From Muricea muricata (Eukaryota > Cnidaria > Anthozoa > Malacalcyonacea > Plexauridae), in NCBI GenBank assembly GCA_963855995.1, contig OY979720.1:18064139-18128138 (forward strand): DNA of 64,000 bases, given 5' to 3'. This document shows positions 1,062 to 48,179 of the stretch, piece after piece; position 1 is the stretch's first letter; each line of letters starts with the position of its first letter. The translations under genes were made by a program, and so were the position numbers. The notes under the pieces were generated by a model, which was not told the origin of the DNA, did not search any database, and saw only the letters and a list, made by a program, of their open reading frames with translations.

Positions 1062-4000
1062 GTATTTAATCATACTCTGTCGAGGAAGATCTTGAAGTTG
1101 CTTTTGAGTGTAATTACATTTTTAAATATATGGTGACAAATTTATTCCTAAATAAATCCAATTGAGTCTTTTGCAATATCACAAATAATAAAAATCGATA
1201 AGATCACAATTTGAGCATACAGTAGATTTCTGGTGTTGTATGTTTGTAACCCATATGTTTGTAAGTAGAACATATGAAAAATAAATGTGTGTTGAAATCA
1301 GCCTTCCCTTATACTCGGAGAAGACCTTGAAATTCTGATCAAACATACATTTCCAAATTTAATGACCCAGCTTTAGGCGTTCAATATATATCATTGAACT
1401 AAACAGATCATTATTTAAACCTAATGTCGAAGAACAACATTATTGCTGACTCTGAGGCACTACAGGGACGATAAGTATTAGCTAAATAAATGGAAATGTT
1501 GTTCGCTGATTCCATAAATGATCACGCAAATTATATTTTGATGTTTATGATACAACTTATATAAAGCACGTTAATAACGGCATCCTACACATGGATGCAT
1601 GTGCGCATGGCAATAGTGTCTATCCGGTCGTAATTCAACCACAATTACTGCAACAGCAGAGCATGACGTATATATATACAAATCGGTGATACTATATCTT
1701 GATGGTCTGATTCGAAGGTACAGGGTTTTAGCACTCACGGTCTGGGGGCCGCTTCTACCCTCCCCTATATTTTGAACCAGAGGTGGTGGAGTTATGATAC
1801 AGACGGTTGAGGCAGTCAATTCGATGTTGTTGTCGAAAGGCGACCGCATTTGGTGGGTTGTCGAGGCCAATTGTGCGAAGCCATCCGTGTGCAAACTTTT
1901 ATTACAATACCCCGGTCCTTTTCACTATCGTCATGCTGTCTTTTATACCATTCCTAGACTAATCCTTCGAAGGTAGCAGAATTTCTCAGCTGACACCTTT
2001 TGGAACTTTCTAATTTAAATTGGTTACGCTAGTGTGCAATCTCTTATGATGCTTTTCAATAGCCCTAATGTAAGTGGTATAGCATAATTCTTTTCAATTA
2101 TTTATTTGGGCTTTTTTGCAAAAAAAAAGATGGTTCCCACCGTTAAGAAAAACTATAGCATTTTGAGCACGGTGTTTTGTCCAATTTTTTTCGATGATTT
2201 TTTAAAACTGTTATTTTCTCCATTTACCAGAAATTTTGTCAGTGCGGTTAAGAACGAAATAAAAATTTTCATTTATCAGACTGTATGATACAAAGAAGTT
2301 GTGAAATTTTGACGACTTCTTTTCTAAAAAAAATTTCAAAATAGACAAAAAGATACTTTGGAAAGGGTCATAATTCTTCCACTTGACGAAAACTATTTAA
2401 TGCATGGGCAGGAATTGATCCTAGCCACCTTTGTTGAGTCATTTTTACTTGACCACTGGATTACGTTGGTTATGAGGCTGCGGCAGGTGGGTTTAAGTTG
2501 TCTAAACGTTCTAGCCTATGCTTAATGCTTAAAACTGACCAAAGCCAGAACGATTTTTGGCAAAGCTAGGGAGGTATTGTTCCCGGACTCAGTGATTGAT
2601 TTTGATGGATACATATTGTCTTTACCACTAGACTATGTTAGTTACCACTTTCCGTGTTAGTTACCACTTTCAAAGGGTTAAGAATTATCATAAATATGCA
2701 CGCTAGATTAAATCGAAGTTATTCGAGCCCATTCGCGAGCTTTTGTTCGCATTTCATCAAATAATATTTAATCATACTCTGTCGAGGAAGACCCTGAAGT
2801 TGCTTTTGAGTGTAATTACATTTTTAAATTATGTACAAATTTATTTCTAAATAAATCCAATTGAGTCTTTTGCAATATCACAAATAACAAAAATGGGTAA
2901 GATCACAACTTGAGCATATATTTTTGTGAGTAATAAAACATTTGAAAAATAAATGTGTGTTGAAATCAGCCTTCTCTTATACTCGAAGAAGATCTTGTAG
3001 ATTCTGATCAAACATGCTTTTCCAAATATAATGACCTAGCTATAGGCGTCCAATATATACATCATTGACAAAGCAGATCACTATTTAAATCTAATTTCGA
3101 AGGCGACATTATTGCTGGGGCACTACAGAGACGATAAGTATTAAATAAATGGAAACGTGTTTCGCTGATTGCATAAATGACCACGCAAATTATATTTTGA
3201 TGTTTATGATAAAACTTATACAGCACGTTAAAAACAGCAGCCTATATATAGATGCATGTGCGCATGGCAATAGTGCCTACCTGGTCGTAATTCAACCACA
3301 ATTAGTGCAACAGCAAAGCATGACGTATATATATACAAATCGGTGGCACTATAGTATCACCGATTTGTATATATATACGTCATGCTTTGCTGTTGCACTA
3401 ATTGTGGTTGAATTACGACCAGGTAGGCACTATTGCCATGCGTGATCATTTGCTTTTCTTGTTTTAAAATATCTGCCTGTACTTGGGGGAAACAGGCAGA
3501 TCTCTGAAAACAAGAAAGGCTGAACACATCAGAAACGTTAAGGAACATAATAATGGTTCAAACATCGAAAAACATGCAACGCGAACATCATTGACACACG
3601 GAATTTCCGTAGTCGCCTAAAACTAGAAGTCCAGAATCATGGCATACAGCTGCCAAAGACAGGAATGCTGATAACAACTCAAAACCGCTTCCTCGACAAT
3701 GTACAATCTTAATAAAGAAAACATAGTATCACCTTATCGTATTTCACAGTGCACATGTATATACACGTCATATCTAGCTTCATTTCACACTTTCACAGTT
3801 TATAAATCATTATAAATATACCCGTTGAAGGCTACAGACTGGTGGCCGAAAGCTCGTAAACAAATAAATATATTTTAGTCAGAGAACGTCTCACCCTTTT
3901 CATTTATGTCTAATCCTGGCTACACATCTACGATTTTTAGTGGTTTATATTGTTCAACTATTTTTTAAAGATCATTCAGTTGAAAACGGGTAAATAATTT

Positions 4001-4274
4001 AAACCACATAGGGCGAGTGTAATAGCCAACGCGGTCTGGTGATCAAGCAAAGTGGTGTAAATAAACAACGCAGCTGAACGATAATTCCCTTGCTCGGAAT
4101 TATTTTTATGTTTTAGAACAATTATGGGCTAGAGTAAACCCCGCTTAAACAATTTAAGTGGCAAGGGCGTGATAGCATTCATGTAGTCTAGTGGCCAATG
4201 CAAAATGTCTCAAGTCAACGAGTTTTTGGTCAAATCTTGCCCTTGTCACAAACCCCATAGGCTTTTGTCTGGGG
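1062..4274. repeat. Array unit 1 (truncated, divergent)
   Basis: It lacks about the first 100 bp of S-A and begins at TATTTAATCAT. It differs from all other units at many positions. It also lacks a 13-bp stretch that the others have near 5180-5200, where they carry a near-duplicated CCCGTGCGCGCCATCCGTGTGC. Edge units of tandem arrays usually diverge because they escape homogenisation. Confidence 0.9.
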
Positions 4275-4997
4275 TAAGAATTATTATAAATATGCACGCT
4301 AGATTAATTCAAAGTTATTTGAATCCATTCGCGAGCTTTTGTTCGCATTTCATCGAATGATATTTAATCATAGTCTGTCGAGGAAGATCTTGAAGTTGCT
4401 TTGAGTGTAATTACATTTTTAAATGTATGTACAAATTTATTCCTAAATAAATCCAATTGAGTCTTTTGCAATATCACAAATAATAAAAATCGATACGATC
4501 ACAACTTGAGCAAACAGTACGTTTCTGGTGCTACGAATTTTAAAAGCCCATATGTTTGTAAGTAGAACATATGAAAAATAAACGTGTGTTGAAATCAGCC
4601 TTCCCTTATACTCGGAGAAGACCTTGAAATTCTGATCAAACATACATTTCCAAATTTAATGACCCAGCTTTAGGCGTTCAATATATATCATTGAACTAAA
4701 CAGATCATTATTTAAACCTAATGTCGAAGAACAACATTATTGCTGACTCTGAGGCACTACAGGGACGATAAGTATTAGCTAAATAAATGGAAATGTTGTT
4801 CGCTGATTCCATAAATGATCACGCAAATTATATTTTGATGTTTATGATACAACTTATATAAAGCACGTTAATAACGGCATCCTATACATGGATGCATGTG
4901 CGCATGGCAATAGTGTCTACCCGGTCGTAATTCAACCACAATCACTGCAACAGCAGAGCATGACGTATATATATACAAATCGGTGATACTATATCTT
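4275..4997 (+). repeat. S-A block (unit 2 example)
   Basis: Block of about 0.72 kb shared, with divergence, with S-B 1.7 kb later in the same unit. It starts at TAAGAATTAT and ends at the ATATATACAAATCGGTG motif, after which S-A and S-B diverge. It may represent a flank or pseudo-LTR of the Penelope-like element, but no coding capacity is visible. Confidence 0.75.
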
Positions 4998-5988
4998 GAT
5001 GGTCTGGTTCGAAGATACAGGGTTTTAGCACTTACGGTCTGGGGGCCGCTTCTACCCTCCCCTATATTTCGGACCAGAGGTGGTGGAGTTGTTATACAGA
5101 CGGTTGAGGCAGTCAATTCGATGTCGTTGTCGAAAGGCAACCGCATTTGGTGGGTTGTCGAGGCCAATTGTGCGAAGCCACCCGTGCGCGCCATCCGTGT
5201 GCAAACTTTTATTACAATACCCCGGTCCTTTTCACTATCGTCATGCTGTCTTTTATACCATTCCTAGACTAATCCTTCGAAGGTAGCAGAATTTCTCAGC
5301 TGACACCTTTTGGAACTTTCTAATTTAAATTGGTTACGCTAGTGTGCAATCTCTTATGATGCTTTTCAATAGCCCTAATGTAAGTGGTATAGCATAATTC
5401 TTTTCAATTATTTATTTGGGCTTTTTTGCAAAAAAAAAGATGGTTCCCACCGTTAAGAAAAACTATAGCATTTTGAGCACGGTGTTTTGTCCAATTTTTT
5501 TCGATGATTTTTTAAAACTGTTATTTTCTCCATTTACCAGAAATTTTGTCAGTGCGGTTAAGAACGAAATAAAAATTTTCATTTATCAGACTGTATGATA
5601 CAAAGAAGTTGTGAAATTTTGACGACTTCTTTTCTAAAAAAAATTTCAAAATAGACAAAAAGATACTTTGGAAAGGGTCATAATTCTTCCACTTGACGAA
5701 AACTATTTAATGCATGGGCAGGAATTGATCCTAGCCACCTTTGTTGAGTCATTTTTACTTGACCACTGGATTACGTTGGTTATGAGGCTGCGGCAGGTGG
5801 GTTTAAGTTGTCTAAACGTTCTAGCCTATGCTTAATGCTTAAAACTGACCAAAGCCAGAACGATTTTTGGCAAAGCTAGGGAGGTATTGTTCCCGGACTC
5901 AGTGATTGATTTTGATGGATACATATTGTCTTTACCACTAGACTATGTTAGTTACCACTTTCCATGTTAGTTACCACTTTCAAAGGGT
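4998..5988. repeat. Y segment (unit 2 example)
   Basis: About 1 kb found only after S-A. A GC-richer patch (about 5030-5230) is followed by an AT-rich stretch with a T6-GC-A9 hairpin (near 5421) and then a minus-strand tRNA-like module. The frames here (108 codons on minus, 94 and 60 on plus) lack known motifs. U1 and the expanded poly-A in unit 4 break them, so I do not call genes. Confidence 0.65.
5711..5790 (-). repeat. tRNA-like module, minus strand (unit 2 example)
   Basis: On the reverse strand TAATCCAGTGGTCAAGT resembles an A box and GGCTAGGATCAATTCCTG a T arm with B box. Its spacing and sequence resemble the plus-strand module in X, so the two look like members of one tRNA-derived family in opposite orientation in each unit. 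Confidence 0.35.
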
Positions 5989-6667
5989 TAAGAATTATCA
6001 TAAATATACACGCTAGATTAAATCGAAGTTATTCGAGCCCATTCGCGAGCTTTTGTTCGCATTTCATCAAATAATATTTAATCATACTCTGTCGAGGAAG
6101 ACCCTGAAGTTGCTTTTGAGTGTAATTACATTTTTAAATTATGTACAAATTTATTTCTAAACAAATCCAATTGAGTCTTTTGCAATATCACAAATAACAA
6201 AAATGGGTAAGATCACAACTTGAGCATATATTTTTGTGAGTAATAAAACATTTGAAAAATAAATGTGTGTTGAAATCAGCCTTCTCTTATACTCGAAGAA
6301 GATCTTGTAGATTCTGATCAAACATGCTTTTCCAAATATAATGACCTAGCTATAGGCGTCCAATATATACATCATTGACAAAGCAGATCACTATTTAAAT
6401 CTAATTTCGAAGGCAACATTATTGCTGGGGCACTACAGAGACGATAAGTATTAAATAAATGGAAATGTGTTTCGCTGATTGCATAAATGACCACGCAAAT
6501 TATATTTTGATGTTTATGATAAAACTTATACAGCACGTTAAAAACAGCAGCCTATATATAGATGCATGTGCGCATGGCAATAGTGCCTACCTGGTCGTAA
6601 TTCAACCACAATTAGTGCAACAGCAAAGCATGACGTATATATATACAAATCGGTGGCACTATAGTAT
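5989..6667 (+). repeat. S-B block (unit 2 example)
   Basis: Second S copy in the unit. Relative to S-A it lacks the TTTCTGGTGCTACGAATT stretch, and it ends in the left arm of the long palindrome. S-B runs straight into the inverted arm and the GIY-YIG remnant. Confidence 0.75.
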
Positions 6668-6752
6668 CACCGATTTGTATATATATACGTCATGCTTTGC
6701 TGTTGCACTAATTGTGGTTGAATTACGACCAGGTAGGCACTATTGCCATGCG
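6571..6752. repeat. Long perfect palindrome, 85-bp arms (unit 2 example)
   Basis: The arms at 6571-6655 and 6668-6752 are exact reverse complements around a 12-bp spacer that itself contains the palindrome ACTATAGT. Equivalents occur in every unit (3261-3442, then every 3,310 bp). Four units (8, 10, 11, 13) carry one C-to-G change in the left arm only. The right arm is an inverted copy of the 3' end of the S block, fused to the GIY-YIG remnant. A transcript across it would form an 85-bp hairpin. Confidence 0.95.
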
Positions 6753-6780
6753 TGATCATTTGCTTTTCTTGTTTTAAAAT

Positions 6781-7036
6781 ATCTGCCTGTACTTGGGGGA
6801 AACAGGCAGATCTCTGAAAACAAGAAAGGCTGAACACATCAGAAACGTTAAGGAACATAATAATGGTTCAAACATCGAAAAACATGCAACGCGAACATCA
6901 TTGACACACGGAATTTCCGTAGTCGCCTAAAACTAGAAGTCCAGAATCATGGCATACAGCTGCCAAAGACAGGAATGCTGATAACAACTCAAAACCGCTT
7001 CCTCGACAATGTACAATCTTAATAAAGAAAACATAG
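6781..7036 (+). pseudogene. Penelope-like element GIY-YIG endonuclease remnant (unit 2 example)
   Basis: The plus frame reads CLYLGETGRSLKTRKAEHIR and continues with an NVK..NNGSNI.KHA motif, typical of the GIY-YIG nuclease at the C-terminus of Penelope-like polyproteins. A shifted frame then gives PESWHTAAK and ADNNSKPLPRQ before TAG, the usual end of such proteins. Compared with the dispersed copy at 50198, a 31-bp deletion after the KHA codons causes a frameshift, shared by all units. No reverse transcriptase domain is present. Equivalent starts are 3471, 10091, 13402, 16712, 20022, 23332, 26642, 29952, 33262, 36572, 39882, 43192 and 46502. It is non-functional as protein. Confidence 0.8.
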
Positions 7037-7125
7037 TATCACCTTATCGTATTTCACAGTGCACATGTATATACACGTCATATCTAGCTTCATTTCACAC
7101 TTTCACAGTTTATAAATCATTATAA

Positions 7126-7172
7126 ATATACCCGTTGAAGGCTACAGACTGGTGGCCGAAAGCTCGTAAACA
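7126..7172 (+). ncRNA. Decayed hammerhead-ribozyme-like motif (unit 2 example)
   Basis: About 95 bp downstream of the GIY-YIG stop, CCGTTGA is followed by a 6-bp stem (GGCTAC with GTGGCC, one G-T wobble) around AGACTG, then GAAA and GCTCGTA. The order matches the hammerhead core CTGATGA, stem II, GAAA, short stem III, cleavage triplet. Penelope-like elements are known to carry hammerheads near their ends. The first core block has two substitutions and stem III is not convincing, so it is probably inactive. It recurs once per unit (first at about 3816). Confidence 0.45.
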
Positions 7173-7470
7173 AATAAATATATTTTAGTCAGAGAACGTC
7201 TCACCCTTTTCATTTATGTCTAATCCTGGCTACACATCTACGATTTTTAGTGGTTTATATTGTTCAACTATTTTTTAAAGATCATTCAGTTGAAAACGGG
7301 TAAATAATTTAAACCACATAGGGCGAGTGTAATAGCCAACGCGGTCTGGTGATCAAGCAAAGTGGTGTAAATAAACAACGCAGCTGAACGATAATTCCCT
7401 TGCTCGGAATTATTTTTATGTTTTAGAACAATTATGGGCTAGAGTAAACCCCGCTTAAACAATTTAAGTG

Positions 7471-7556
7471 GCAAGGGCGTGATAGCATTCATGTAGTCTA
7501 GTGGCCAATGCAAAATGTCTCAAGTCAACGAGTTTTTGGTCAAATCTTGCCCTTGT
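7471..7556 (+). repeat. tRNA-like module, plus strand (unit 2 example)
   Basis: GCAAGGGC at the left and GCCCTTG at the right can pair as a stem. TAGTCTAGTGGCCAATGC resembles a tRNA A box (D arm), and GGTCAAATC a weak B box. It is probably a decayed tRNA-derived SINE head and not a working tRNA, since no clean cloverleaf is evident. It recurs in every unit just before S-A. Confidence 0.35.
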
Positions 7557-7584
7557 CACAAACCCCATAGGCTTTTGTCTGGGG

Positions 7585-10500
7585 TAAGAATTATTATAAA
7601 TATGCACGCTAGATTAATTCAAAGTTATTTGAACCCATTCGCGAGCTTTTGTTCGCATTTCATCGAATGATATTTAATCATAGTCTGTCGAGGAAGATCT
7701 TGAAGTTGCTTTGAGTGTAATTACATTTTTAAATGTATGTACAAATTTATTCCTAAATAAATCCAATTGAGTCTTTTGCAATATCACAAATAATAAAAAT
7801 CGATACGATCACAACTTGAGCAAACAGTACGTTTCTGGTGCTACGAGTTTTAAAAGCCCATATGTTTGTAAGTAGAACATATGAAAAATAAACGTGTGTT
7901 GAAATCAGCCTTCCCTTATACTCGGAGAAGACCTTGAAATTCTGATCAAACATACATTTCCAAATTTAATGACCCAGCTTTAGGCGTTCAATATATATCA
8001 TTGAACTAAACAGATCATTATTTAAACCTAATGTCGAAGAACAACATTATTGCTGACTCTGAGGCACTACAGGGACGATAAGTATTAGCTAAATAAATGG
8101 AAATGTTGTTCGCTGATTCCATAAATGATCACGCAAATTATATTTTGATGTTTATGATACAACTTATATAAAGCACGTTAATAACGGCATCCTATACATG
8201 GATGCATGTGCGCATGGCAATAGTGTCTACCCGGTCGTAATTCAACCACAATCACTGCAACAGCAGAGCATGACGTATATATATACAAATCGGTGATACT
8301 ATATCTTGATGGTCTGGTTCGAAGATACAGGGTTTTAGCACTTACGGTCTGGGGGCCGCTTCTACCCTCCCCTATATTTCGGACCAGAGGTGGTGGAGTT
8401 GTTATACAGACGGTTGAGGCAGTCAATTCGATGTCGTTGTCGAAAGGCAACCGCATTTGGTGGGTTGTCGAGGCCAATTGTGCGAAGCCACCCGTGCGCG
8501 CCATCCGTGTGCAAACTTTTATTACAATACCCCGGTCCTTTTCACTATCGTCATGCTGTCTTTTATACCATTCCTAGACTAATCCTTCGAAGGTAGCAGA
8601 ATTTCTCAGCTGACACCTTTTGGAACTTTCTAATTTAAATTGGTTACGCTAGTGTGCAATCTCTTATGATGCTTTTCAATAGCCCTAATGTAAGTGGTAT
8701 AGCATAATTCTTTTCAATTATTTATTTGGGCTTTTTTGCAAAAAAAAAGATGGTTCCCACCGTTAAGAAAAACTATAGCATTTTGAGCACGGTGTTTTGT
8801 CCAATTTTTTTCGATGATTTTTTAAAACTGTTATTTTCTCCATTTACCAGAAATTTTGTCAGTGCGGTTAAGAACGAAATAAAAATTTTCATTTATCAGA
8901 CTGTATGATACAAAGAAGTTGTGAAATTTTGACGACTTCTTTTCTAAAAAAAATTTCAAAATAGACAAAAAGATACTTTGGAAAGGGTCATAATTCTTCC
9001 ACTCGACGAAAACTATTTAATGCATGGGCAGGAATTGATCCTAGCCACCTTTGTTGAGTCATTTTTACTTGACCACTGGATTACGTTGGTTATGAGGCTG
9101 CGGCAGGTGGGTTTAAGTTGTCTAAACGTTCTAGCCTATGCTTAATGCTTAAAACTGACCAAAGCCAGAACGATTTTTGGCAAAGCTAGGGAGGTATTGT
9201 TCCCGGACTCAGTGATTGATTTTGATGGATACATATTGTCTTTACCACTAGACTATGTTAGTTACCACTTTCCATGTTAGTTACCACTTTCAAAGGGTTA
9301 AGAATTATCATAAATATACACGCTAGATTAAATCGAAGTTATTCGAGCCCATTCGCGAGCTTTTGTTCGCATTTCATCAAATAATATTTAATCATACTCT
9401 GTCGAGGAAGACCCTGAAGTTGCTTTTGAGTGTAATTACATTTTTAAATTATGTACAAATTTATTTCTAAACAAATCCAATTGAGTCTTTTGCAATATCA
9501 CAAATAACAAAAATGGGTAAGATCACAACTTGAGCATATATTTTTGTGAGTAATAAAACATTTGAAAAATAAATGTGTGTTGAAATCAGCCTTCTCTTAT
9601 ACTCGAAGAAGATCTTGTAGATTCTGATCAAACATGCTTTTCCAAATATAATGACCTAGCTATAGGCGTCCAATATATACATCATTGACAAAGCAGATCA
9701 CTATTTAAATCTAATTTCGAAGGCAACATTATTGCTGGGGCACTACAGAGACGATAAGTATTAAATAAATGGAAATGTGTTTCGCTGATTGCATAAATGA
9801 CCACGCAAATTATATTTTGATGTTTATGATAAAACTTATACAGCACGTTAAAAACAGCAGCCTATATATAGATGCATGTGCGCATGGCAATAGTGCCTAC
9901 CTGGTCGTAATTCAACCACAATTAGTGCAACAGCAAAGCATGACGTATATATATACAAATCGGTGGCACTATAGTATCACCGATTTGTATATATATACGT
10001 CATGCTTTGCTGTTGCACTAATTGTGGTTGAATTACGACCAGGTAGGCACTATTGCCATGCGTGATCATTTGCTTTTCTTGTTTTAAAATATCTGCCTGT
10101 ACTTGGGGGAAACAGGCAGATCTCTGAAAACAAGAAAGGCTGAACACATCAGAAACGTTAAGGAACATAATAATGGTTCAAACATCGAAAAACATGCAAC
10201 GCGAACATCATTGACACACGGAATTTCCGTAGTCGCCTAAAACTAGAAGTCCAGAATCATGGCATACAGCTGCCAAAGACAGGAATGCTGATAACAACTC
10301 AAAACCGCTTCCTCGACAATGTACAATCTTAATAAAGAAAACATAGTATCACCTTATCGTATTTCACAGTGCACATGTATATACACGTCATATCTAGCTT
10401 CATTTCACACTTTCACAGTTTATAAATCATTATAAATATACCCGTTGAAGGCTACAGACTGGTGGCCGAAAGCTCGTAAACAAATAAATATATTTTAGTC

Positions 10501-10894
10501 AGAGAACGTCTCACCCTTTTCATTTATGTCTAATCCTGGCTACACATCTACGATTTTTAGTGGTTTATATTGTTCAACTATTTTTTAAAGATCATTCAGT
10601 TGAAAACGGGTAAATAATTTAAACCACATAGGGCGAGTGTAATAGCCAACGCGGTCTGGTGATCAAGCAAAGTGGTGTAAATAAACAACGCAGCTGAACG
10701 ATAATTCCCTTGCTCGGAATTATTTTTATGTTTTAGAACAATTATGGGCTAGAGTAAACCCCGCTTAAACAATTTAAGTGGCAAGGGCGTGATAGCATTC
10801 ATGTAGTCTAGTGGCCAATGCAAAATGTCTCAAGTCAACGAGTTTTTGGTCAAATCTTGCCCTTGTCACAAACCCCATAGGCTTTTGTCTGGGG
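7585..10894. repeat. Array unit 3
   Basis: Carries the linked S-A variants GAACCCATTCG (about 7632) and CGAGTTTTAAAAG (about 7846), otherwise seen together only in unit 8. In Y it has CACTTACGG and GTTGTTATA, with CCACTCGACG. Confidence 0.95.
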
Positions 10895-13800
10895 TAAGAA
10901 TTATTATAAATATGCACGCTAGATTAATTCAAAGTTATTTGAATCCATTCGCGAGCTTTTGTTCGCATTTCATCGAATGATATTTAATCATAGTCTGTCG
11001 AGGAAGATCTTGAAGTTGCTTTGAGTGTAATTACATTTTTAAATGTATGTACAAATTTATTCCTAAATAAATCCAATTGAGTCTTTTGCAATATCACAAA
11101 TAATAAAAATCGATACGATCACAACTTGAGCAAACAGTACGTTTCTGGTGCTACGAATTTTAAAAGCCCATATGTTTGTAAGTAGAACATATGAAAAATA
11201 AACGTGTGTTGAAATCAGCCTTCCCTTATACTCGGAGAAGACCTTGAAATTCTGATCAAACATACATTTCCAAATTTAATGACCCAGCTTTAGGCGTTCA
11301 ATATATATCATTGAACTAAACAGATCATTATTTAAACCTAATGTCGAAGAACAACATTATTGCTGACTCTGAGGCACTACAGGGACGATAAGTATTAGCT
11401 AAATAAATGGAAATGTTGTTCGCTGATTCCATAAATGATCACGCAAATTATATTTTGATGTTTATGATACAACTTATATAAAGCACGTTAATAACGGCAT
11501 CCTATACATGGATGCATGTGCGCATGGCAATAGTGTCTACCCGGTCGTAATTCAACCACAATCACTGCAACAGCAGAGCATGACGTATATATATACAAAT
11601 CGGTGATACTATATCTTGATGGTCTGGTTCGAAGATACAGGGTTTTAGCACTCACGGTCTGGGGGCCGCTTCTACCCTCCCCTATATTTCGGACCAGAGG
11701 TGGTGGAGTTGTTATACAGACGGTTGAGGCAGTCAATTCGATGTCGTTGTCGAAAGGCAACCGCATTTGGTGGGTTGTCGAGGCCAATTGTGCGAAGCCA
11801 CCCGTGCGCGCCATCCGTGTGCAAACTTTTATTACAATACCCCGGTCCTTTTCACTATCGTCATGCTGTCTTTTATACCATTCCTAGACTAATCCTTCGA
11901 AGGTAGCAGAATTTCTCAGCTGACACCTTTTGGAACTTTCTAATTTAAATTGGTTACGCTAGTGTGCAATCTCTTATGATGCTTTTCAATAGCCCTAATG
12001 TAAGTGGTATAGCATAATTCTTTTCAATTATTTATTTGGGCTTTTTTGCAAAAAAAAAAGATGGTTCCCACCGTTAAGAAAAACTATAGCATTTTGAGCA
12101 CGGTGTTTTGTCCAATTTTTTTCGATGATTTTTTAAAACTGTTATTTTCTCCATTTACCAGAAATTTTGTCAGTGCGGTTAAGAACGAAATAAAAATTTT
12201 CATTTATCAGACTGTATGATACAAAGAAGTTGTGAAATTTTGACGACTTCTTTTCTAAAAAAAATTTCAAAATAGACAAAAAGATACTTTGGAAAGGGTC
12301 ATAATTCTTCCACTCGACGAAAACTATTTAATGCATGGGCAGGAATTGATCCTAGCCACCTTTGTTGAGTCATTTTTACTTGACCACTGGATTACGTTGG
12401 TTATGAGGCTGCGGCAGGTGGGTTTAAGTTGTCTAAACGTTCTAGCCTATGCTTAATGCTTAAAACTGACCAAAGCCAGAACGATTTTTGGCAAAGCTAG
12501 GGAGGTATTGTTCCCGGACTCAGTGATTGATTTTGATGGATACATATTGTCTTTACCACTAGACTATGTTAGTTACCACTTTCCATGTTAGTTACCACTT
12601 TCAAAGGGTTAAGAATTATCATAAATATACACGCTAGATTAAATCGAAGTTATTCGAGCCCATTCGCGAGCTTTTGTTCGCATTTCATCAAATAATATTT
12701 AATCATACTCTGTCGAGGAAGACCCTGAAGTTGCTTTTGAGTGTAATTACATTTTTAAATTATGTACAAATTTATTTCTAAACAAATCCAATTGAGTCTT
12801 TTGCAATATCACAAATAACAAAAATGGGTAAGATCACAACTTGAGCATATATTTTTGTGAGTAATAAAACATTTGAAAAATAAATGTGTGTTGAAATCAG
12901 CCTTCTCTTATACTCGAAGAAGATCTTGTAGATTCTGATCAAACATGCTTTTCCAAATATAATGACCTAGCTATAGGCGTCCAATATATACATCATTGAC
13001 AAAGCAGATCACTATTTAAATCTAATTTCGAAGGCAACATTATTGCTGGGGCACTACAGAGACGATAAGTATTAAATAAATGGAAATGTGTTTCGCTGAT
13101 TGCATAAATGACCACGCAAATTATATTTTGATGTTTATGATAAAACTTATACAGCACGTTAAAAACAGCAGCCTATATATAGATGCATGTGCGCATGGCA
13201 ATAGTGCCTACCTGGTCGTAATTCAACCACAATTAGTGCAACAGCAAAGCATGACGTATATATATACAAATCGGTGGCACTATAGTATCACCGATTTGTA
13301 TATATATACGTCATGCTTTGCTGTTGCACTAATTGTGGTTGAATTACGACCAGGTAGGCACTATTGCCATGCGTGATCATTTGCTTTTCTTGTTTTAAAA
13401 TATCTGCCTGTACTTGGGGGAAACAGGCAGATCTCTGAAAACAAGAAAGGCTGAACACATCAGAAACGTTAAGGAACATAATAATGGTTCAAACATCGAA
13501 AAACATGCAACGCGAACATCATTGACACACGGAATTTCCGTAGTCGCCTAAAACTAGAAGTCCAGAATCATGGCATACAGCTGCCAAAGACAGGAATGCT
13601 GATAACAACTCAAAACCGCTTCCTCGACAATGTACAATCTTAATAAAGAAAACATAGTATCACCTTATCGTATTTCACAGTGCACATGTATATACACGTC
13701 ATATCTAGCTTCATTTCACACTTTCACAGTTTATAAATCATTATAAATATACCCGTTGAAGGCTACAGACTGGTGGCCGAAAGCTCGTAAACAAATAAAT

Positions 13801-20500: not shown

Positions 20501-20825
20501 TTGTTCAACTATTTTTTAAAGATCATTCAGTTGAAAACGGGTAAATAATTTAAACCACATAGGGCGAGTGTAATAGCCAACGCGGTCTGGTGATCAAGCA
20601 AAGTGGTGTAAATAAACAACGCAGCTGAACGATAATTCCCTTGCTCGGAATTATTTTTATGTTTTAGAACAATTATGGGCTAGAGTAAACCCCGCTTAAA
20701 CAATTTAAGTGGCAAGGGCGTGATAGCATTCATGTAGTCTAGTGGCCAATGCAAAATGTCTCAAGTCAACGAGTTTTTGGTCAAATCTTGCCCTTGTCAC
20801 AAACCCCATAGGCTTTTGTCTGGGG
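17516..20825. repeat. Array unit 6
   Basis: Y haplotype CACTCACGG with GTTATTATA. I noted no private variant. It is close to the consensus of units 5-9. Confidence 0.95.
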
Positions 20826-37375: not shown

Positions 37376-40300
37376 TAAGAATTATTATAAATATGCACGC
37401 TAGATTAATTCAAAGTTATTTGAATCCATTCGCGAGCTTTTGTTCGCATTTCATCGAATGATATTTAATCATAGTCTGTCGAGGAAGATCTTGAAGTTGC
37501 TTTGAGTGTAATTACATTTTTAAATGTATGTACAAATTTATTCCTAAATAAATCCAATTGAGTCTTTTGCAATATCACAAATAATAAAAATCGATACGAT
37601 CACAACTTGAGCAAACAGTACGTTTCTGGTGCTACGAATTTTAAAAGCCCATATGTTTGTAAGTAGAACATATGAAAAATAAACGTGTGTTGAAATCAGC
37701 CTTCCCTTATACTCGGAGAAGACCTTGAAATTCTGATCAAACATACATTTCCAAATTTAATGACCCAGCTTTAGGCGTTCAATATATATCATTGAACTAA
37801 ACAGATCATTATTTAAACCTAATGTCGAAGAACAACATTATTGCTGACTCTGAGGCACTACAGGGACGATAAGTATTAGCTAAATAAATGGAAATGTTGT
37901 TCGCTGATTCCATAAATGATCACGCAAATTATATTTTGATGTTTATGATACAACTTATATAAAGCACGTTAATAACGGCATCCTATACATGGATGCATGT
38001 GCGCATGGCAATAGTGTCTACCCGGTCGTAATTCAACCACAATCACTGCAACAGCAGAGCATGACGTATATATATACAAATCGGTGATACTATATCTTGA
38101 TGGTCTGGTTCGAAGATACAGGGTTTTAGCACTCACGGTCTGGGGGCCGCTTCTACCCTCCCCTATATTTCGGACCAGAGGTGGTGGAGTTATTATACAG
38201 ACGGTTGAGGCAGTCAATTCGATGTCGTTGTCGAAAGGCAACCGCATTTGGTGGGTTGTCGAGGCCAATTGTGCGAAGCCACCCGTGCGCGCCATCCGTG
38301 TGCAAACTTTTATTACAATACCCCGGTCCTTTTCACTATCGTCATGCTGTCTTTTATACCATTCCTAGACTAATCCTTCGAAGGTAGCAGAATTTCTCAG
38401 CTGACACCTTTTGGAACTTTCTAATTTAAATTGGTTACGCTAGTGTGCAATCTCTTATGATGCTTTTCAATAGCCCTAATGTAAGTGGTATAGCATAATT
38501 CTTTTCAATTATTTATTTGGGCTTTTTTGCAAAAAAAAAGATGGTTCCCACCGTTAAGAAAAACTATAGCATTTTGAGCACGGTGTTTTGTCCAATTTTT
38601 TTCGATGATTTTTTAAAACTGTTATTTTCTCCATTTACCAGAAATTTTGTCAGTGCGGTTAAGAACGAAATAAAAATTTTCATTTATCAGACTGTATGAT
38701 ACAAAGAAGTTGTGAAATTTTGACGACTTCTTTTCTAAAAAAAATTTCAAAATAGACAAAAAGATACTTTGGAAAGGGTCATAATTCTTCCACTCGACGA
38801 AAACTATTTAATGCATGGGCAGGAATTGATCCTAGCCACCTTTGTTGAGTCATTTTTACTTGACCACTGGATTACGTTGGTTATGAGGCTGCGGCAGGTG
38901 GGTTTAAGTTGTCTAAACGTTCTAGCCTATGCTTAATGCTTAAAACTGACCAAAGCCAGAACGATTTTTGGCAAAGCTAGGGAGGTATTGTTCCCGGACT
39001 CAGTGATTGATTTTGATGGATACATATTGTCTTTACCACTAGACTATGTTAGTTACCACTTTCCATGTTAGTTACCACTTTCAAAGGGTTAAGAATTATC
39101 ATAAATATACACGCTAGATTAAATCGAAGTTATTCGAGCCCATTCGCGAGCTTTTGTTCGCATTTCATCAAATAATATTTAATCATACTCTGTCGAGGAA
39201 GACCCTGAAGTTGCTTTTGAGTGTAATTACATTTTTAAATTATGTACAAATTTATTTCTAAACAAATCCAATTGAGTCTTTTGCAATATCACAAATAACA
39301 AAAATGGGTAAGATCACAACTTGAGCATATATTTTTGTGAGTAATAAAACATTTGAAAAATAAATGTGTGTTGAAATCAGCCTTCTCTTATACTCGAAGA
39401 AGATCTTGTAGATTCTGATCAAACATGCTTTTCCAAATATAATGACCTAGCTATAGGCGTCCAATATATACATCATTGACAAAGCAGATCACTATTTAAA
39501 TCTAATTTCGAAGGCAACATTATTGCTGGGGCACTACAGAGACGATAAGTATTAAATAAATGGAAATGTGTTTCGCTGATTGCATAAATGACCACGCAAA
39601 TTATATTTTGATGTTTATGATAAAACTTATACAGCACGTTAAAAACAGCAGCCTATATATAGATGCATGTGCGCATGGCAATAGTGCCTACCTGGTCGTA
39701 ATTCAACCACAATTAGTGCAACAGCAAAGCATGACGTATATATATACAAATCGGTGGCACTATAGTATCACCGATTTGTATATATATACGTCATGCTTTG
39801 CTGTTGCACTAATTGTGGTTGAATTACGACCAGGTAGGCACTATTGCCATGCGTGATCATTTGCTTTTCTTGTTTTAAAATATCTGCCTGTACTTGGGGG
39901 AAACAGGCAGATCTCTGAAAACAAGAAAGGCTGAACACATCAGAAACGTTAAGGAACATAATAATGGTTCAAACATCGAAAAACATGCAACGCGAACATC
40001 ATTGACACACGGAATTTCCGTAGTCGCCTAAAACTAGAAGTCCAGAATCATGGCATACAGCTGCCAAAGACAGGAATGCTGATAACAACTCAAAACCGCT
40101 TCCTCGACAATGTACAATCTTAATAAAGAAAACATAGTATCACCTTATCGTATTTCACAGTGCACATGTATATACACGTCATATCTAGCTTCATTTCACA
40201 CTTTCACAGTTTATAAATCATTATAAATATACCCGTTGAAGGCTACAGACTGGTGGCCGAAAGCTCGTAAACAAATAAATATATTTTAGTCAGAGAACGT

Positions 40301-40685
40301 CTCACCCTTTTCATTTATGTCTAATCCTGGCTACACATCTACGATTTTTAGTGGTTTATATTGTTCAACTATTTTTTAAAGATCATTCAGTTGAAAACGG
40401 GTAAATAATTTAAACCACATAGGGCGAGTGTAATAGCCAACGCGGTCTGGTGATCAAGCAAAGTGGTGTAAATAAACAACGCAGCTGAACGATAATTCCC
40501 TTGCTCGGAATTATTTTTATGTTTTAGAACAATTATGGGCTAGAGTAAACCCCGCTTAAACAATTTAAGTGGCAAGGGCGTGATAGCATTCATGTAGTCT
40601 AGTGGCCAATGCAAAATGTCTCAAGTCAACGAGTTTTTGGTCAAATCTTGCCCTTGTCACAAACCCCATAGGCTTTTGTCTGGGG
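37376..40685. repeat. Array unit 12
   Basis: Y haplotype CACTCACGG with GTTATTATA. None of the unit-8 variant set is present. Confidence 0.95.
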
Positions 40686-43600
40686 TAAGAATTATTATAA
40701 ATATGCACGCTAGATTAATTCAAAGTTATTTGAATCCATTCGCGAGCTTTTGTTCGCATTTCATCGAATGATATTTAATCATAGTCTGTCGAGGAAGATC
40801 TTGAAGTTGCTTTGAGTGTAATTACATTTTTAAATGTATGTACAAATTTATTCCTAAATAAATCCAATTGAGTCTTTTGCAATATCACAAATAATAAAAA
40901 TCGATACGATCACAACTTGAGCAAACAGTACGTTTCTGGTGCTACGAATTTTAAAAGCCCATATGTTTGTAAGTAGAACATATGAAAAATAAACGTGTGT
41001 TGAAATCAGCCTTCCCTTATACTCGGAGAAGACCTTGAAATTCTGATCAAACATACATTTCCAAATTTAATGACCCAGCTTTAGGCGTTCAATATATATC
41101 ATTGAACTAAACAGATCATTATTTAAACCTAATGTCGAAGAACAACATTATTGCTGACTCTGAGGCACTACAGGGACGATAAGTATTAGCTAAATAAATG
41201 GAAATGTTGTTCGCTGATTCCATAAATGATCACGCAAATTATATTTTGATGTTTATGATACAACTTATATAAAGCACGTTAATAACGGCATCCTATACAT
41301 GGATGCATGTGCGCATGGCAATAGTGTCTACCCGGTCGTAATTCAACCACAATCACTGCAACAGCAGAGCATGACGTATATATATACAAATCGGTGATAC
41401 TATATCTTGATGGTCTGGTTCGAAGATACAGGGTTTTAGCACTTACGGTCTGGGGGCCGCTTCTACCCTCCCCTATATTTCGGACCAGAGGTGGTGGAGT
41501 TGTTATACAGACGGTTGAGGCAGTCAATTCGATGTCGTTGTCGAAAGGCAACCGCATTTGGTGGGTTGTCGAGGCCAATTGTGCGAAGCCACCCGTGCGC
41601 GCCATCCGTGTGCAAACTTTTATTACAATACCCCGGTCCTTTTCACTATCGTCATGCTGTCTTTTATACCATTCCTAGACTAATCCTTCGAAGGTAGCAG
41701 AATTTCTCAGCTGACACCTTTTGGAACTTTCTAATTTAAATTGGTTACGCTAGTGTGCAATCTCTTATGATGCTTTTCAATAGCCCTAATGTAAGTGGTA
41801 TAGCATAATTCTTTTCAATTATTTATTTGGGCTTTTTTGCAAAAAAAAAGATGGTTCCCACCGTTAAGAAAAACTATAGCATTTTGAGCACGGTGTTTTG
41901 TCCAATTTTTTTCGATGATTTTTTAAAACTGTTATTTTCTCCATTTACCAGAAATTTTGTCAGTGCGGTTAAGAACGAAATAAAAATTTTCATTTATCAG
42001 ACTGTATGATACAAAGAAGTTGTGAAATTTTGACGACTTCTTTTCTAAAAAAAATTTCAAAATAGACAAAAAGATACTTTGGAAAGGGTCATAATTCTTC
42101 CACTTGACGAAAACTATTTAATGCATGGGCAGGAATTGATCCTAGCCACCTTTGTTGAGTCATTTTTACTTGACCACTGGATTACGTTGGTTATGAGGCT
42201 GCGGCAGGTGGGTTTAAGTTGTCTAAACGTTCTAGCCTATGCTTAATGCTTAAAACTGACCAAAGCCAGAACGATTTTTGGCAAAGCTAGGGAGGTATTG
42301 TTCCCGGACTCAGTGATTGATTTTGATGGATACATATTGTCTTTACCACTAGACTATGTTAGTTACCACTTTCCATGTTAGTTACCACTTTCAAAGGGTT
42401 AAGAATTATCATAAATATACACGCTAGATTAAATCGAAGTTATTCGAGCCCATTCGCGAGCTTTTGTTCGCATTTCATCAAATAATATTTAATCATACTC
42501 TGTCGAGGAAGACCCTGAAGTTGCTTTTGAGTGTAATTACATTTTTAAATTATGTACAAATTTATTTCTAAACAAATCCAATTGAGTCTTTTGCAATATC
42601 ACAAATAACAAAAATGGGTAAGATCACAACTTGAGCATATATTTTTGTGAGTAATAAAACATTTGAAAAATAAATGTGTGTTGAAATCAGCCTTCTCTTA
42701 TACTCGAAGAAGATCTTGTAGATTCTGATCAAACATGCTTTTCCAAATATAATGACCTAGCTATAGGCGTCCAATATATACATCATTGACAAAGCAGATC
42801 ACTATTTAAATCTAATTTCGAAGGCAACATTATTGCTGGGGCACTACAGAGACGATAAGTATTAAATAAATGGAAATGTGTTTCGCTGATTGCATAAATG
42901 ACCACGCAAATTATATTTTGATGTTTATGATAAAACTTATACAGCACGTTAAAAACAGCAGCCTATATATAGATGCATGTGCGCATGGCAATAGTGCCTA
43001 CGTGGTCGTAATTCAACCACAATTAGTGCAACAGCAAAGCATGACGTATATATATACAAATCGGTGGCACTATAGTATCACCGATTTGTATATATATACG
43101 TCATGCTTTGCTGTTGCACTAATTGTGGTTGAATTACGACCAGGTAGGCACTATTGCCATGCGTGATCATTTGCTTTTCTTGTTTTAAAATATCTGCCTG
43201 TACTTGGGGGAAACAGGCAGATCTCTGAAAACAAGAAAGGCTGAACACATCAGAAACGTTAAGGAACATAATAATGGTTCAAACATCGAAAAACATGCAA
43301 CGCGAACATCATTGACACACGGAATTTCCGTAGTCGCCTAAAACTAGAAGTCCAGAATCATGGCATACAGCTGCCAAAGACAGGAATGCTGATAACAACT
43401 CAAAACCGCTTCCTCGACAATGTACAATCTTAATAAAGAAAACATAGTATCACCTTATCGTATTTCACAGTGCACATGTATATACACGTCATATCTAGCT
43501 TCATTTCACACTTTCACAGTTTATAAATCATTATAAATATACCCGTTGAAGGCTACAGACTGGTGGCCGAAAGCTCGTAAACAAATAAATATATTTTAGT

Positions 43601-43995
43601 CAGAGAACGTCTCACCCTTTTCATTTATGTCTAATCCTGGCTACACATCTACGATTTTTAGTGGTTTATATTGTTCAACTATTTTTTAAAGATCATTCAG
43701 TTGAAAACGGGTAAATAATTTAAACCACATAGGGCGAGTGTAATAGCCAACGCGGTCTGGTGATCAAGCAAAGTGGTGTAAATAAACAACGCAGCTGAAC
43801 GATAATTCCCTTGCTCGGAATTATTTTTATGTTTTAGAACAATTATGGGCTAGAGTAAACCCCGCTTAAACAATTTAAGTGGCAAGGGCGTGATAGCATT
43901 CATGTAGTCTAGTGGCCAATGCAAAATGTCTCAAGTCAACGAGTTTTTGGTCAAATCTTGCCCTTGTCACAAACCCCATAGGCTTTTGTCTGGGG
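40686..43995. repeat. Array unit 13
   Basis: Y haplotype CACTTACGG with GTTGTTATA and CCACTTGACG (as in units 2 and 14), combined with the CGTGG palindrome-arm variant of units 8, 10 and 11. Confidence 0.95.
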
Positions 43996-46900
43996 TAAGA
44001 ATTATTATAAATATGCACGCTAGATTAATTCAAAGTTATTTGAATCCATTCGCGAGCTTTTGTTCGCATTTCATCGAATGATATTTAATCATAGTCTGTC
44101 GAGGAAGATCTTGAAGTTGCTTTGAGTGTAATTACATTTTTAAATGTATGTACAAATTTATTCCTAAATAAATCCAATTGAGTCTTTTGCAATATCACAA
44201 ATAATAAAAATCGATACGATCACAACTTGAGCAAACAGTACGTTTCTGGTGCTACGAATTTTAAAAGCCCATATGTTTGTAAGTAGAACATATGAAAAAT
44301 AAACGTGTGTTGAAATCAGCCTTCCCTTATACTCGGAGAAGACCTTGAAATTCTGATCAAACATACATTTCCAAATTTAATGACCCAGCTTTAGGCGTTC
44401 AATATATATCATTGAACTAAACAGATCATTATTTAAACCTAATGTCGAAGAACAACATTATTGCTGACTCTGAGGCACTACAGGGACGATAAGTATTAGC
44501 TAAATAAATGGAAATGTTGTTCGCTGATTCCATAAATGATCACGCAAATTATATTTTGATGTTTATGATACAACTTATATAAAGCACGTTAATAACGGCA
44601 TCCTATACATGGATGCATGTGCGCATGGCAATAGTGTCTACCCGGTCGTAATTCAACCACAATCACTGCAACAGCAGAGCATGACGTATATATATACAAA
44701 TCGGTGATACTATATCTTGATGGTCTGGTTCGAAGATACAGGGTTTTAGCACTTACGGTCTGGGGGCCGCTTCTACCCTCCCCTATATTTCGGACCAGAG
44801 GTGGTGGAGTTGTTATACAGACGGTTGAGGCAGTCAATTCGATGTCGTTGTCGAAAGGCAACCGCATTTGGTGGGTTGTCGAGGCCAATTGTGCGAAGCC
44901 ACCCGTGCGCGCCATCCGTGTGCAAACTTTTATTACAATACCCCGGTCCTTTTCACTATCGTCATGCTGTCTTTTATACCATTCCTAGACTAATCCTTCG
45001 AAGGTAGCAGAATTTCTCAGCTGACACCTTTTGGAACTTTCTAATTTAAATTGGTTACGCTAGTGTGCAATCTCTTATGATGCTTTTCAATAGCCCTAAT
45101 GTAAGTGGTATAGCATAATTCTTTTCAATTATTTATTTGGGCTTTTTTGCAAAAAAAAAGATGGTTCCCACCGTTAAGAAAAACTATAGCATTTTGAGCA
45201 CGGTGTTTTGTCCAATTTTTTTCGATGATTTTTTAAAACTGTTATTTTCTCCATTTACCAGAAATTTTGTCAGTGCGGTTAAGAACGAAATAAAAATTTT
45301 CATTTATCAGACTGTATGATACAAAGAAGTTGTGAAATTTTGACGACTTCTTTTCTAAAAAAAATTTCAAAATAGACAAAAAGATACTTTGGAAAGGGTC
45401 ATAATTCTTCCACTTGACGAAAACTATTTAATGCATGGGCAGGAATTGATCCTAGCCACCTTTGTTGAGTCATTTTTACTTGACCACTGGATTACGTTGG
45501 TTATGAGGCTGCGGCAGGTGGGTTTAAGTTGTCTAAACGTTCTAGCCTATGCTTAATGCTTAAAACTGACCAAAGCCAGAACGATTTTTGGCAAAGCTAG
45601 GGAGGTATTGTTCCCGGACTCAGTGATTGATTTTGATGGATACATATTGTCTTTACCACTAGACTATGTTAGTTACCACTTTCCATGTTAGTTACCACTT
45701 TCAAAGGGTTAAGAATTATCATAAATATACACGCTAGATTAAATCGAAGTTATTCGAGCCCATTCGCGAGCTTTTGTTCGCATTTCATCAAATAATATTT
45801 AATCATACTCTGTCGAGGAAGACCCTGAAGTTGCTTTTGAGTGTAATTACATTTTTAAATTATGTACAAATTTATTTCTAAACAAATCCAATTGAGTCTT
45901 TTGCAATATCACAAATAACAAAAATGGGTAAGATCACAACTTGAGCATATATTTTTGTGAGTAATAAAACATTTGAAAAATAAATGTGTGTTGAAATCAG
46001 CCTTCTCTTATACTCGAAGAAGATCTTGTAGATTCTGATCAAACATGCTTTTCCAAATATAATGACCTAGCTATAGGCGTCCAATATATACATCATTGAC
46101 AAAGCAGATCACTATTTAAATCTAATTTCGAAGGCAACATTATTGCTGGGGCACTACAGAGACGATAAGTATTAAATAAATGGAAATGTGTTTCGCTGAT
46201 TGCATAAATGACCACGCAAATTATATTTTGATGTTTATGATAAAACTTATACAGCACGTTAAAAACAGCAGCCTATATATAGATGCATGTGCGCATGGCA
46301 ATAGTGCCTACCTGGTCGTAATTCAACCACAATTAGTGCAACAGCAAAGCATGACGTATATATATACAAATCGGTGGCACTATAGTATCACCGATTTGTA
46401 TATATATACGTCATGCTTTGCTGTTGCACTAATTGTGGTTGAATTACGACCAGGTAGGCACTATTGCCATGCGTGATCATTTGCTTTTCTTGTTTTAAAA
46501 TATCTGCCTGTACTTGGGGGAAACAGGCAGATCTCTGAAAACAAGAAAGGCTGAACACATCAGAAACGTTAAGGAACATAATAATGGTTCAAACATCGAA
46601 AAACATGCAACGCGAACATCATTGACACACGGAATTTCCGTAGTCGCCTAAAACTAGAAGTCCAGAATCATGGCATACAGCTGCCAAAGACAGGAATGCT
46701 GATAACAACTCAAAACCGCTTCCTCGACAATGTACAATCTTAATAAAGAAAACATAGTATCACCTTATCGTATTTCACAGTGCACATGTATATACACGTC
46801 ATATCTAGCTTCATTTCACACTTTCACAGTTTATAAATCATTATAAATATACCCGTTGAAGGCTACAGACTGGTGGCCGAAAGCTCGTAAACAAATAAAT

Positions 46901-47305
46901 ATATTTTAGTCAGAGAACGTCTCACCCTTTTCATTTATGTCTAATCCTGGCTACACATCTACGATTTTTAGTGGTTTATATTGTTCAACTATTTTTTAAA
47001 GATCATTCAGTTGAAAACGGGTAAATAATTTAAACCACATAGGGCGAGTGTAATAGCCAACGCGGTCTGGTGATCAAGCAAAGTGGTGTAAATAAACAAC
47101 GCAGCTGAACGATAATTCCCTTGCTCGGAATTATTTTTATGTTTTAGAACAATTATAGGCTAGAGTAAACCCCGCTTAAACAATTTAAGTGGCAAGGGCG
47201 TGATAGCATTCATGTAGTCTAGTGGCCAATGCAAAAGGTCTCAAGTCAACGAGTTTTTGGTCAAATCTTGCCCTTGTCACAAACCCCATAGGCTTTTGTC
47301 TGGGG
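43996..47305. repeat. Array unit 14
   Basis: Y haplotype as in units 2 and 13. Private changes cluster at its right end (AATTATAGGC near 47155 and AAAAGGTCTC near 47235), consistent with reduced homogenisation towards the array edge. Confidence 0.95.
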
Positions 47306-48179
47306 TAAGAATTATTATAGATATACACGCTAGATTAATTCAAAGTTATTTGAACCCATTCGCGAGCTTTTGTTCGCATTTCATCGAATGATATTTAATC
47401 ATAGCCTGTCGAGGAAGACCTTGAAGTTGCTTTTGAGTGTAATTACATTTTTAAATGTATGTACAAATTTATTTCTAAATAAATCCAATTGAGTCTTTTG
47501 CAATATCACAAATAACAAAAATAGGTAAGGTGAAAACTTGAGCATATAGTAGGTTTCTGGTGCTACGAATTTTAAAAGCCTATATTTTTGTGAGTAATAA
47601 AACATTTGAAAAATAAATGTGTGTTGAAATCAGCCTTCTCTTATACTCGGAGAAGACCTTGTAAATTCTGATCAAACATACTTTTCCAAATATAATGACC
47701 TAGCTATAGGCGTCCAATATGTATCATTGAACAAAGCAGATCACTATTTAAATCTAATTTCGAAGAACAACATTATTGCTGGAGCACTACAGAGACGATA
47801 AGTATTAAATAAATGGAAATGTTGTTCGCTGATTCCATAAATGATCACGCAAATTATATTTTGATGTTTATGATACAACTTATATACAGCACGTTAATAA
47901 CAGCATCCTATACATGGATGCATGTGCGCATGGCAATAGTGTCTACCCGGTCGTAATTCAACCACAATCACTGCAAAAGCAGAGCATGACGTATATATAT
48001 ACAAATCGGTGGTACTATAGTATCACTTATTCGTATATATATACGTCACGCTCTGCTGTTGCAGTAATTGTGGTTGAATTACGACCAGGTAGGCACTATT
48101 GCCATGCGTGATCTTTTGCTTTTCTTGTTTTTAAATATCTGCCTGTACTTAGGGGAAACAGGCAGATCTCTGAAAAGAC
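47306..48179. repeat. Terminal partial copy (S block, palindrome, start of GIY-YIG remnant)
   Basis: Homology breaks off inside the GIY-YIG remnant just after the YLGETGRSLK codons. The S block mixes states: it keeps the GTTTCTGGTGCTACGAATTTTAAAAG stretch typical of S-A (split here as GTTTCTGGTG and CTACGAATTT), yet has TTTTTGTGAGTAATAAAACA as in S-B. Unlike S-A it is followed by the inverted arm and the GIY-YIG remnant. This makes it a candidate for the ancestral, undimerised element, or a recombinant. Its palindrome arms (from 47927 to 48108) have about seven mismatches, unlike the perfect arms in the array. Confidence 0.85.

What the first reader, a model, noticed from the sequence alone, without database searches (positions are those of the whole stretch)
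1062..48179. A 46-kb array of a dimeric 3.3-kb unit built on Penelope-like element debris
Most satellites have short units. Here a composite S-A/Y/S-B/X unit carrying GIY-YIG, hammerhead-like and tRNA-like parts has been amplified about 14 times with near identity. Penelope-like elements often insert as partial tandems, which would give a natural seed for unequal exchange. Seen: period, order, parts. Inferred: the amplification route.
Basis: partly seen in the sequence, partly recalled or inferred. Interest (0 to 1): 0.75.

Follow-up and report, generated by a model that had tools for sequence, protein, structure and literature searches.

The report
Coral satellite array of transposon debris
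A soft-coral chromosome carries fourteen nearly identical 3.3-kb tandem repeats that contain the dead tail end of a Penelope-type jumping gene, and the same repeat forms other arrays in that genome; this is a new example of a known process, jumping-gene wreckage turning into satellite DNA.

Summary
Confirmed: 14 head-to-tail units of ~3310 bp at 1062-47390, plus a decayed partial unit to ~48179. Units 2-14 differ pairwise at 0-12 of 3314 columns. The order S-A / Y / S-B / X holds. The host is most likely an octocoral.

X is Penelope-like element (PLE) debris: a profile of the C-terminal domain of RT-bearing relatives finds it at E 1.6e-12 and 1.9e-9. It is 5'-truncated and frame-broken. The name GIY-YIG rests on sub-cut-off Pfam hits in 2 of 10 relatives and on recalled motifs. 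The hammerhead and tRNA parts are not supported.

In the own genome a Y marker occurs 867 times. Arrays of the same order were read on contigs 2 and 3. The three arrays are homogenised separately: 0.16-1.1% divergence within, 1.6-2.8% between. One 36-mer variant occurs only here (14 of 14 hits). On contig 2 a five-unit block recurs nine units (29.9 kb) away.

Best reading: a multi-array complex satellite, probably seeded by a palindromic PLE derivative, amplified by unequal exchange. Several arrays per contig speak against a one-per-chromosome centromere. Known kind, new family.

The parts
1062..4359 (+). unit 1 (3298 bp), left edge of the array, the most divergent full unit
   Evidence: 53-59 column differences from units 2-14
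4360..47390 (+). units 2-14, 3310 bp each (one of 3311), near-identical
   Evidence: 0-12 pairwise column differences of 3314; units 6, 9 and 12 identical
47391..48179 (+). terminal partial unit: S, decayed palindrome, start of X
   Evidence: S aligned; X start at 48108-48180; palindrome arms with 9 mismatches
4272..4993 (+). module S, copy A (with its 88-bp leader), example unit 2
   Evidence: S-A/S-B 84% over 638 columns, leader 91% over 88; alignment
4994..5984 (+). module Y, unidentified
   Evidence: the frames 4871-5263 (-) and 4914-5264 (+), which span the S-A/Y joint, have 0 Pfam families at E<=1
5985..6663 (+). module S, copy B (with its 88-bp leader), example unit 2
6571..6752 (.). 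182-bp palindrome at the S-B/X joint, with TATATATATAC in both arms
   Evidence: 2 arm mismatches in 10 and 3 in 4 of the 14 array units; RNA fold -161.8 kcal/mol; positions
6664..7580 (+). module X: palindrome arm, then 5'-truncated PLE endonuclease end and its 3' tail
6790..6897 (+). PLE endonuclease-end fragment 1 (profile positions 16-51)
   Evidence: E 1.6e-12
6941..7030 (+). PLE endonuclease-end fragment 2, other frame (profile positions 74-102)
   Evidence: E 1.9e-9
49877..50393 (+). relict single copy outside the array: 5'-truncated S, palindrome, X start with a longer endonuclease piece; nhmmer extends the S part weakly to 49808
   Evidence: 86.6% to the unit over 49877-50375; nhmmer ends; profile E 4.9e-22 at 50204-50380

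Best explanation
The window holds one array of a complex satellite DNA family of an octocoral. Shown: the unit is a dimer of two monomers sharing module S (S-Y about 1.7 kb, S-X about 1.6 kb); X is the dead, 5'-truncated C-terminal end of a Penelope-like element; the same dimer forms arrays at several places in the genome; the three arrays read are each homogenised on their own; and a sister array holds multi-unit block copies. Inferred: a non-autonomous PLE derivative made of S, a head-to-head palindrome and a truncated endonuclease end was inserted by PLE-type retrotransposition, joined to S-Y, and then amplified by unequal exchange. No coding or RNA function of the unit was found.
For: Array anatomy. 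PLE homology: a 7-row profile without the three octocoral rows gives E 1.6e-12 and 1.9e-9 in the unit, window read backwards best E 5.3. Relatives carry reverse-transcriptase matches upstream of this domain: RVT_1 E 4e-4 to 2e-3 in 3 of 6 scanned, below the Pfam cut-off; NCBIfam RT models in 3 of 10 alignment members, best E 3.8e-7; YVDD visible in the alignment. Genome: 867 Y-marker hits, 0 for the reversed control; same-order arrays on C2 and C3. Mean divergence C5 0.16%, C3 0.25%, C2 1.10% within; 1.60-2.83% between (5 of 35 C2 units dropped by length). A 36-mer S-A variant found only here, 14 of 14 hits (repeated). C2 units 21-25 match units 30-34, and unit 13 equals unit 15. 5'-truncated copies outside arrays: 49877-50375 and L037 on C6, where S starts at position 199 after 102 bp without match. 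32 of the 150 scored PLE matches begin at residue 76, the X breakpoint, on 12 contigs; 11 of the 32 lie in two regular arrays, on C15 (8) and C13 (3).
Against: S and Y have no identified origin, so 'PLE derivative' rests on X and the palindromic form. The relict frame of the window has 0 Pfam families at E<=1. GIY-YIG is matched in only 2 of 10 aligned relatives, E 0.024 and 0.005, below the cut-off, and in 0 of the 6. Unrelated Pfam families score as well (TraV E 3.7e-4 in one member), so these weak scores alone prove little. No target-site duplication was seen at the array ends by eye and none was tested elsewhere. Palindrome arms differ between arrays, so its upkeep is no evidence of function. 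Only 40 of 2046 and 150 of 4145 candidates were scored. Matches starting at residue 76 may lie in arrays whose other units were not scored; only one of them (L037) was read, and only its 5' side. L036, chosen as a solo copy, proved to be array edges.
Confidence: 0.78

Rival explanations
1. The arrays are the centromeric satellite of this octocoral.
For: Homogenised arrays with array-private variants, and older decayed modules beside one of them (C2 24.2946-24.2989 Mb, 68-81% identity), a pattern known for centromeric satellites (pattern recalled).
Against: Several separate arrays per contig among the 100 listed of 867 hits: C3 at 17.85-17.90, 34.71-34.74, 37.61-37.62 and 40.49-40.66 Mb; C2 at 24.16-24.29 and 29.44 Mb; further regular X series on C13 and two on C15. 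A cathepsin Z-like gene starts 3 kb from this array.
Confidence: 0.08
2. The tandem form was made directly by PLE retrotransposition (template jumping over tandem transcripts), not by recombination.
For: PLEs are organised in tandem or partial tandem (PMC11167929, text parts 1 and 2 of 4 read; PMC3846280, passages).
Against: Near-identity of whole 3.3-kb units, collinear multi-unit block copies in C2, and an extra ~0.83 kb (spacings 4136, 4135, 4137) recurring in the C2 array point to DNA-level duplication.
Confidence: 0.1
3. Assembly artefact or wrongly expanded repeat.
For: Near-identical units are hard to assemble; no reads could be checked.
Against: Unit 1 and units 2-14 carry their own variants, one variant is private to this array, and separately assembled arrays have their own periods: 3120-3122 on C3, mostly 3294-3369 on C2. 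Exact copy number stays uncertain.
Confidence: 0.04

Closest known systems
Satellites with Penelope similarity in the flea beetle Omophoita octoguttata (superfamily SF1; PMC11846391, passages)
   Same: Tandem satellite families with stretches matching Penelope elements
   Different: Here a dimeric 3.3-kb unit with a dead endonuclease end and a long palindrome, in an octocoral
Retrotransposon-derived satellites of Lathyrus sativus (PMC7004042, abstract and outline)
   Same: Tandem pieces of a retroelement expanded into long arrays
   Different: There short arrays inside LTR retrotransposons, expanded mainly in primary constrictions; here PLE debris and several arrays per contig
Penelope elements of Adineta vaga (PMC3846280, passages)
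   Same: Head-to-head inverted pLTRs with a palindrome at the joint, TATATATA plus an initiator-like site readable both ways, 5' truncation, partial tandems
   Different: Those carry an RT-endonuclease frame; the unit here keeps only the endonuclease end, and S has not been shown to be a pLTR
Metazoan retrozymes with type I hammerheads (PMC7229834, passages)
   Same: Tandem repeats in cnidarian and other animal genomes tied to retroelements
   Different: Units of a few hundred bp with a hammerhead; here 3.3 kb and no hammerhead found

Membership tests
Satellite DNA family | head-to-tail tandem arrays of a repeated unit | tested here: met
Satellite DNA family | concerted evolution: copies within an array closer than between arrays | tested here: met
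   0.16-1.10% within, 1.60-2.83% between three arrays; private 36-mer
Satellite DNA family | heterochromatic location | not testable with these tools
   no chromatin data held
Canonical Penelope-like element (RT + GIY-YIG endonuclease) | reverse-transcriptase domain in the unit | tested here: not met
   the two stop-to-stop frames of 100 aa or more in unit 2 have 0 Pfam families at E<=1; X starts inside the C-terminal domain. The unit is debris, not a member. Shorter frames were not scanned for RT
Canonical Penelope-like element (RT + GIY-YIG endonuclease) | homology to the C-terminal domain of RT-bearing PLE proteins | tested here: met
   profile E 1.6e-12 and 1.9e-9, profile positions 1-15 lost and 52-73 matched only at E 3.8 in part; frames broken
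Canonical Penelope-like element (RT + GIY-YIG endonuclease) | that domain being GIY-YIG by a curated model | tested here: inconclusive
   Pfam GIY-YIG in 2 of 10 relatives, E 0.005 and 0.024, below cut-off; 0 families in the window's relict frame
Canonical Penelope-like element (RT + GIY-YIG endonuclease) | pLTRs in tandem and/or inverted orientation | tested here: inconclusive
   S recurs and sits head-to-head with X through a palindrome, but no intact PLE with S was read
Hammerhead retrozyme / hammerhead satellite | hammerhead ribozyme | tested here: not met
   Rfam and core scans find none in the unit; a more degenerate form is not excluded
Centromeric satellite | one main array per chromosome | tested here: not met
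   at least four arrays on C3 and two on C2 (100 of 867 hits listed)
Centromeric satellite | CENP-A occupancy | not testable with these tools
   no chromatin data held
tRNA-derived SINE | A and B boxes of a tRNA head | tested here: not met
   one weak pair against a shuffle mean of 0.9; ARAGORN 0

The most novel reading that the evidence does not exclude
S-palindrome-X is a non-autonomous foldback derivative of a Penelope-like element, mobilised in trans, whose insertions keep founding new satellite arrays across the genome, so that PLE self-priming (inverted, palindromic 5' ends) is a standing route from retrotransposon to satellite.
Probability: 0.25. Interest if true: 0.6.

Novelty: new member of a known kind. 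Interest (0 to 1): 0.4.

Why it matters
It brings together, in one animal genome, longer PLE copies, truncated palindromic copies outside arrays, and homogenised satellite arrays with visible multi-unit copies. That makes the step from retrotransposon debris to satellite testable in an early-branching animal. Six library searches on these themes (I saw titles and starts of abstracts of 15 of 64, 15 of 85, 1 of 1, 15 of 16, 15 of 50 and 2 of 2 papers) listed no paper that by title or abstract start describes this repeat; that does not show that none exists.

Tried and rejected
Hammerhead: strict core 0 and relaxed core (one mismatch in all, helix II of 3 bp or more) 0 in the unit on both strands. 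A looser pattern hits 7149 and 7346; 7149 departs from the core at several positions and lies in the tail behind the endonuclease end. tRNA/SINE: chance level. microRNA-type Rfam hits: all below gathering scores; the strongest lie on the palindrome. Conserved hairpin: arms carry 2-3 mismatches in the 14 C5 units, 3-5 in 15 C3 copies, 7-10 in 36 C2 copies, 5 and 5 in L036, 9 and 13 in the two window relicts; read by eye, the changes sit on one arm only (no pair-count tool was run). Solo transposon at C2:17.07 Mb: L036 shows array edges facing each other. Solved structures: 0 hits for one relative, P0154. PMC3833285 and PMC10794172 were opened for Penelope passages and gave nothing on PLE-derived satellites. 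Centromere: see rivals.

Genome distribution beyond the first contigs could not be mapped: one search lists 100 of 867 hits, in contig order, so contigs after C3 do not appear. Counts of the palindrome-X joint and of the X tail were asked for but did not complete.

Full report
OBSERVATION. The 20-mer offset histogram of the window peaks at 3310. Fourteen units run from 1062 to 47390; units 2-14 differ pairwise at 0-12 of 3314 columns and units 6, 9 and 12 are identical, while unit 1 differs at 53-59. A decayed partial unit follows to about 48179. The unit is a dimer: module S occurs twice (84% over 638 columns, with a leader of 88 bp at 91%), followed by Y in one half and X in the other. A 182-bp palindrome spans the S-B/X joint.

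WHAT X IS. X reads in broken frames as an endonuclease end. A protein search with the open relict frame 50126-50482 gave 17 proteins with E<=0.01 among 22 candidates, one of them the window's own. P0007 among them keeps an upstream block NNVIYKIPCKDC...YVGETGR. tblastn of P0007 against unit 2 gave blocks in three frames (E 6e-20, 1e-17, 3e-9). A search with P0007 gave 266 proteins with E<=1e-10 among 335 candidates. Of six longer relatives, three show partial RVT_1 (E 4e-4 to 2e-3, below the cut-off); of the ten aligned, three match NCBIfam reverse-transcriptase models (best E 3.8e-7); YVDD stands upstream of the shared block (motif meaning recalled). GIY-YIG in Pfam is reached by 2 of these ten, E 0.005 and 0.024, below the cut-off, and the window's relict frame has no Pfam family at E<=1, so the name GIY-YIG leans on recalled PLE motifs. 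A profile of seven rows, leaving out the three octocoral rows, finds the unit at E 1.6e-12 and 1.9e-9 and the relict at 4.9e-22; the window read backwards gives best E 5.3. X therefore derives from a PLE-type protein, is 5'-truncated within its last domain and frame-broken, and cannot encode a working enzyme (inference).

WHAT IS NOT THERE. No hammerhead and no tRNA was found. ARAGORN was run with its bacterial code. The 40 hits are all below their gathering scores and sit mainly on the palindrome.

HOST. Two tandem cathepsin Z-like genes lie to the right (duplicated stretches within 50846-53612 and 54465-56882, about 94%; Peptidase_C1 E 6.1e-24 for one exon frame; exon joins). The predicted protein is 89% identical to a partial Paramuricea clavata protein over 84% of the query and 79% to Dendronephthya gigantea over 100%: an octocoral, by inference.

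THE FAMILY IN ITS OWN GENOME. The window is C5:18064139-18128138 of a 453-Mb, 74-contig genome. Of 40 scored hits (2046 candidates) 13 are in the window, 23 on C2 and 4 on C3. A Y 32-mer with up to 3 mismatches hits 867 times (473 + 394; reversed control 0 + 0). The 100 exact hits listed fall on C2 (14) and C3 (86): C2 17.07 and 17.30 Mb (1 each), 24.16-24.26 (9), 29.44 (3); C3 17.845-17.903 (20), 34.71-34.74 (9), 37.61-37.62 (4), 40.49-40.66 (53, with spacings near 3315 and near 1691-1697). By extrapolation, 867 units of 3.3 kb would be about 2.9 Mb, 0.6% of the genome. Read: C2 24,157,878-24,285,648 with 36 Y starts, and the C3 array from 17,856,000 on with period 3120-3122 and a shortened S-B. 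Decayed modules in matching order (S, Y, X, S, then S, Y; 68-81%) lie beside the C2 array. Regular series of X matches also occur on C15 (8 at about 3330 bp; 13 mostly at multiples of 4944 bp) and C13 (3 at 3301 bp); whether those units carry S and Y was not read.

HOW THE ARRAYS GREW. Mean divergence is 0.16% (C5, 13 units, 78 pairs), 0.25% (C3, 15 units, 105 pairs) and 1.10% (C2, 30 units, 435 pairs) within arrays, and 1.60 (C3-C5), 2.50 (C2-C3) and 2.83% (C2-C5) between them; 5 of 35 C2 units were dropped for length. A 36-mer with up to 1 mismatch occurs 14 times in the genome, all in this array (repeated). On C2, units 21-25 match units 30-34 (0.00-0.03%), 29.9 kb apart, and unit 13 equals unit 15. 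This is multi-unit duplication at the DNA level, as unequal exchange would give.

WHERE THE UNIT CAME FROM (INFERRED). Two 5'-truncated copies outside arrays were seen: 49877-50375 in the window, and L037 on C6, where 102 bp without match are followed by S from position 199, the palindrome and X (only 701 bp read). In the own genome 32 of 150 scored PLE matches begin at residue 76, the X breakpoint, on 12 contigs (11 of the 32 in two regular arrays), while others keep residues 17-193. Head-to-head inverted repeats with a palindrome at the joint are described for Adineta PLEs and attributed to self-priming; one pLTR there has TATATATA 20 bp from an initiator-like TCACT and is readable both ways (PMC3846280, passages). 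The palindrome here has TATATATATAC and, about 20 bp on, TCACC (read by eye). S may thus be an inverted pLTR, but no intact PLE with S was read.

VERDICT. A real, multi-array complex satellite with PLE debris. Retrotransposon-derived and Penelope-like satellites are known. The family was not found in the searches named under Why it matters; the kind is known.

Noticed in passing
50846-53612 and 54465-56882: Tandem duplication of a cathepsin Z-like gene, about 94% identical stretches, 3 kb from the array.
   Followed up: partly
62149-62589: A 175-bp tandem repeat, 2.5 copies, 91% matches.
   Followed up: no
49351-49428: A perfect 15-bp tandem repeat, 5.2 copies.
   Followed up: no
L036 (C2:17068400-17071600): Two pieces of the satellite face each other across about 770 bp, a head-to-head array edge.
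   Followed up: partly
P0016 (150 aa, another public record): One open frame runs through reversed Y, a single palindrome arm and X, an order not seen in this window.
   Followed up: partly
L035 (C5:1-10000): Left end of the contig holds 1235 CCCTAA words after a run of N; the right end stretch L034 holds 16, so is not telomeric in the same way.
   Followed up: no
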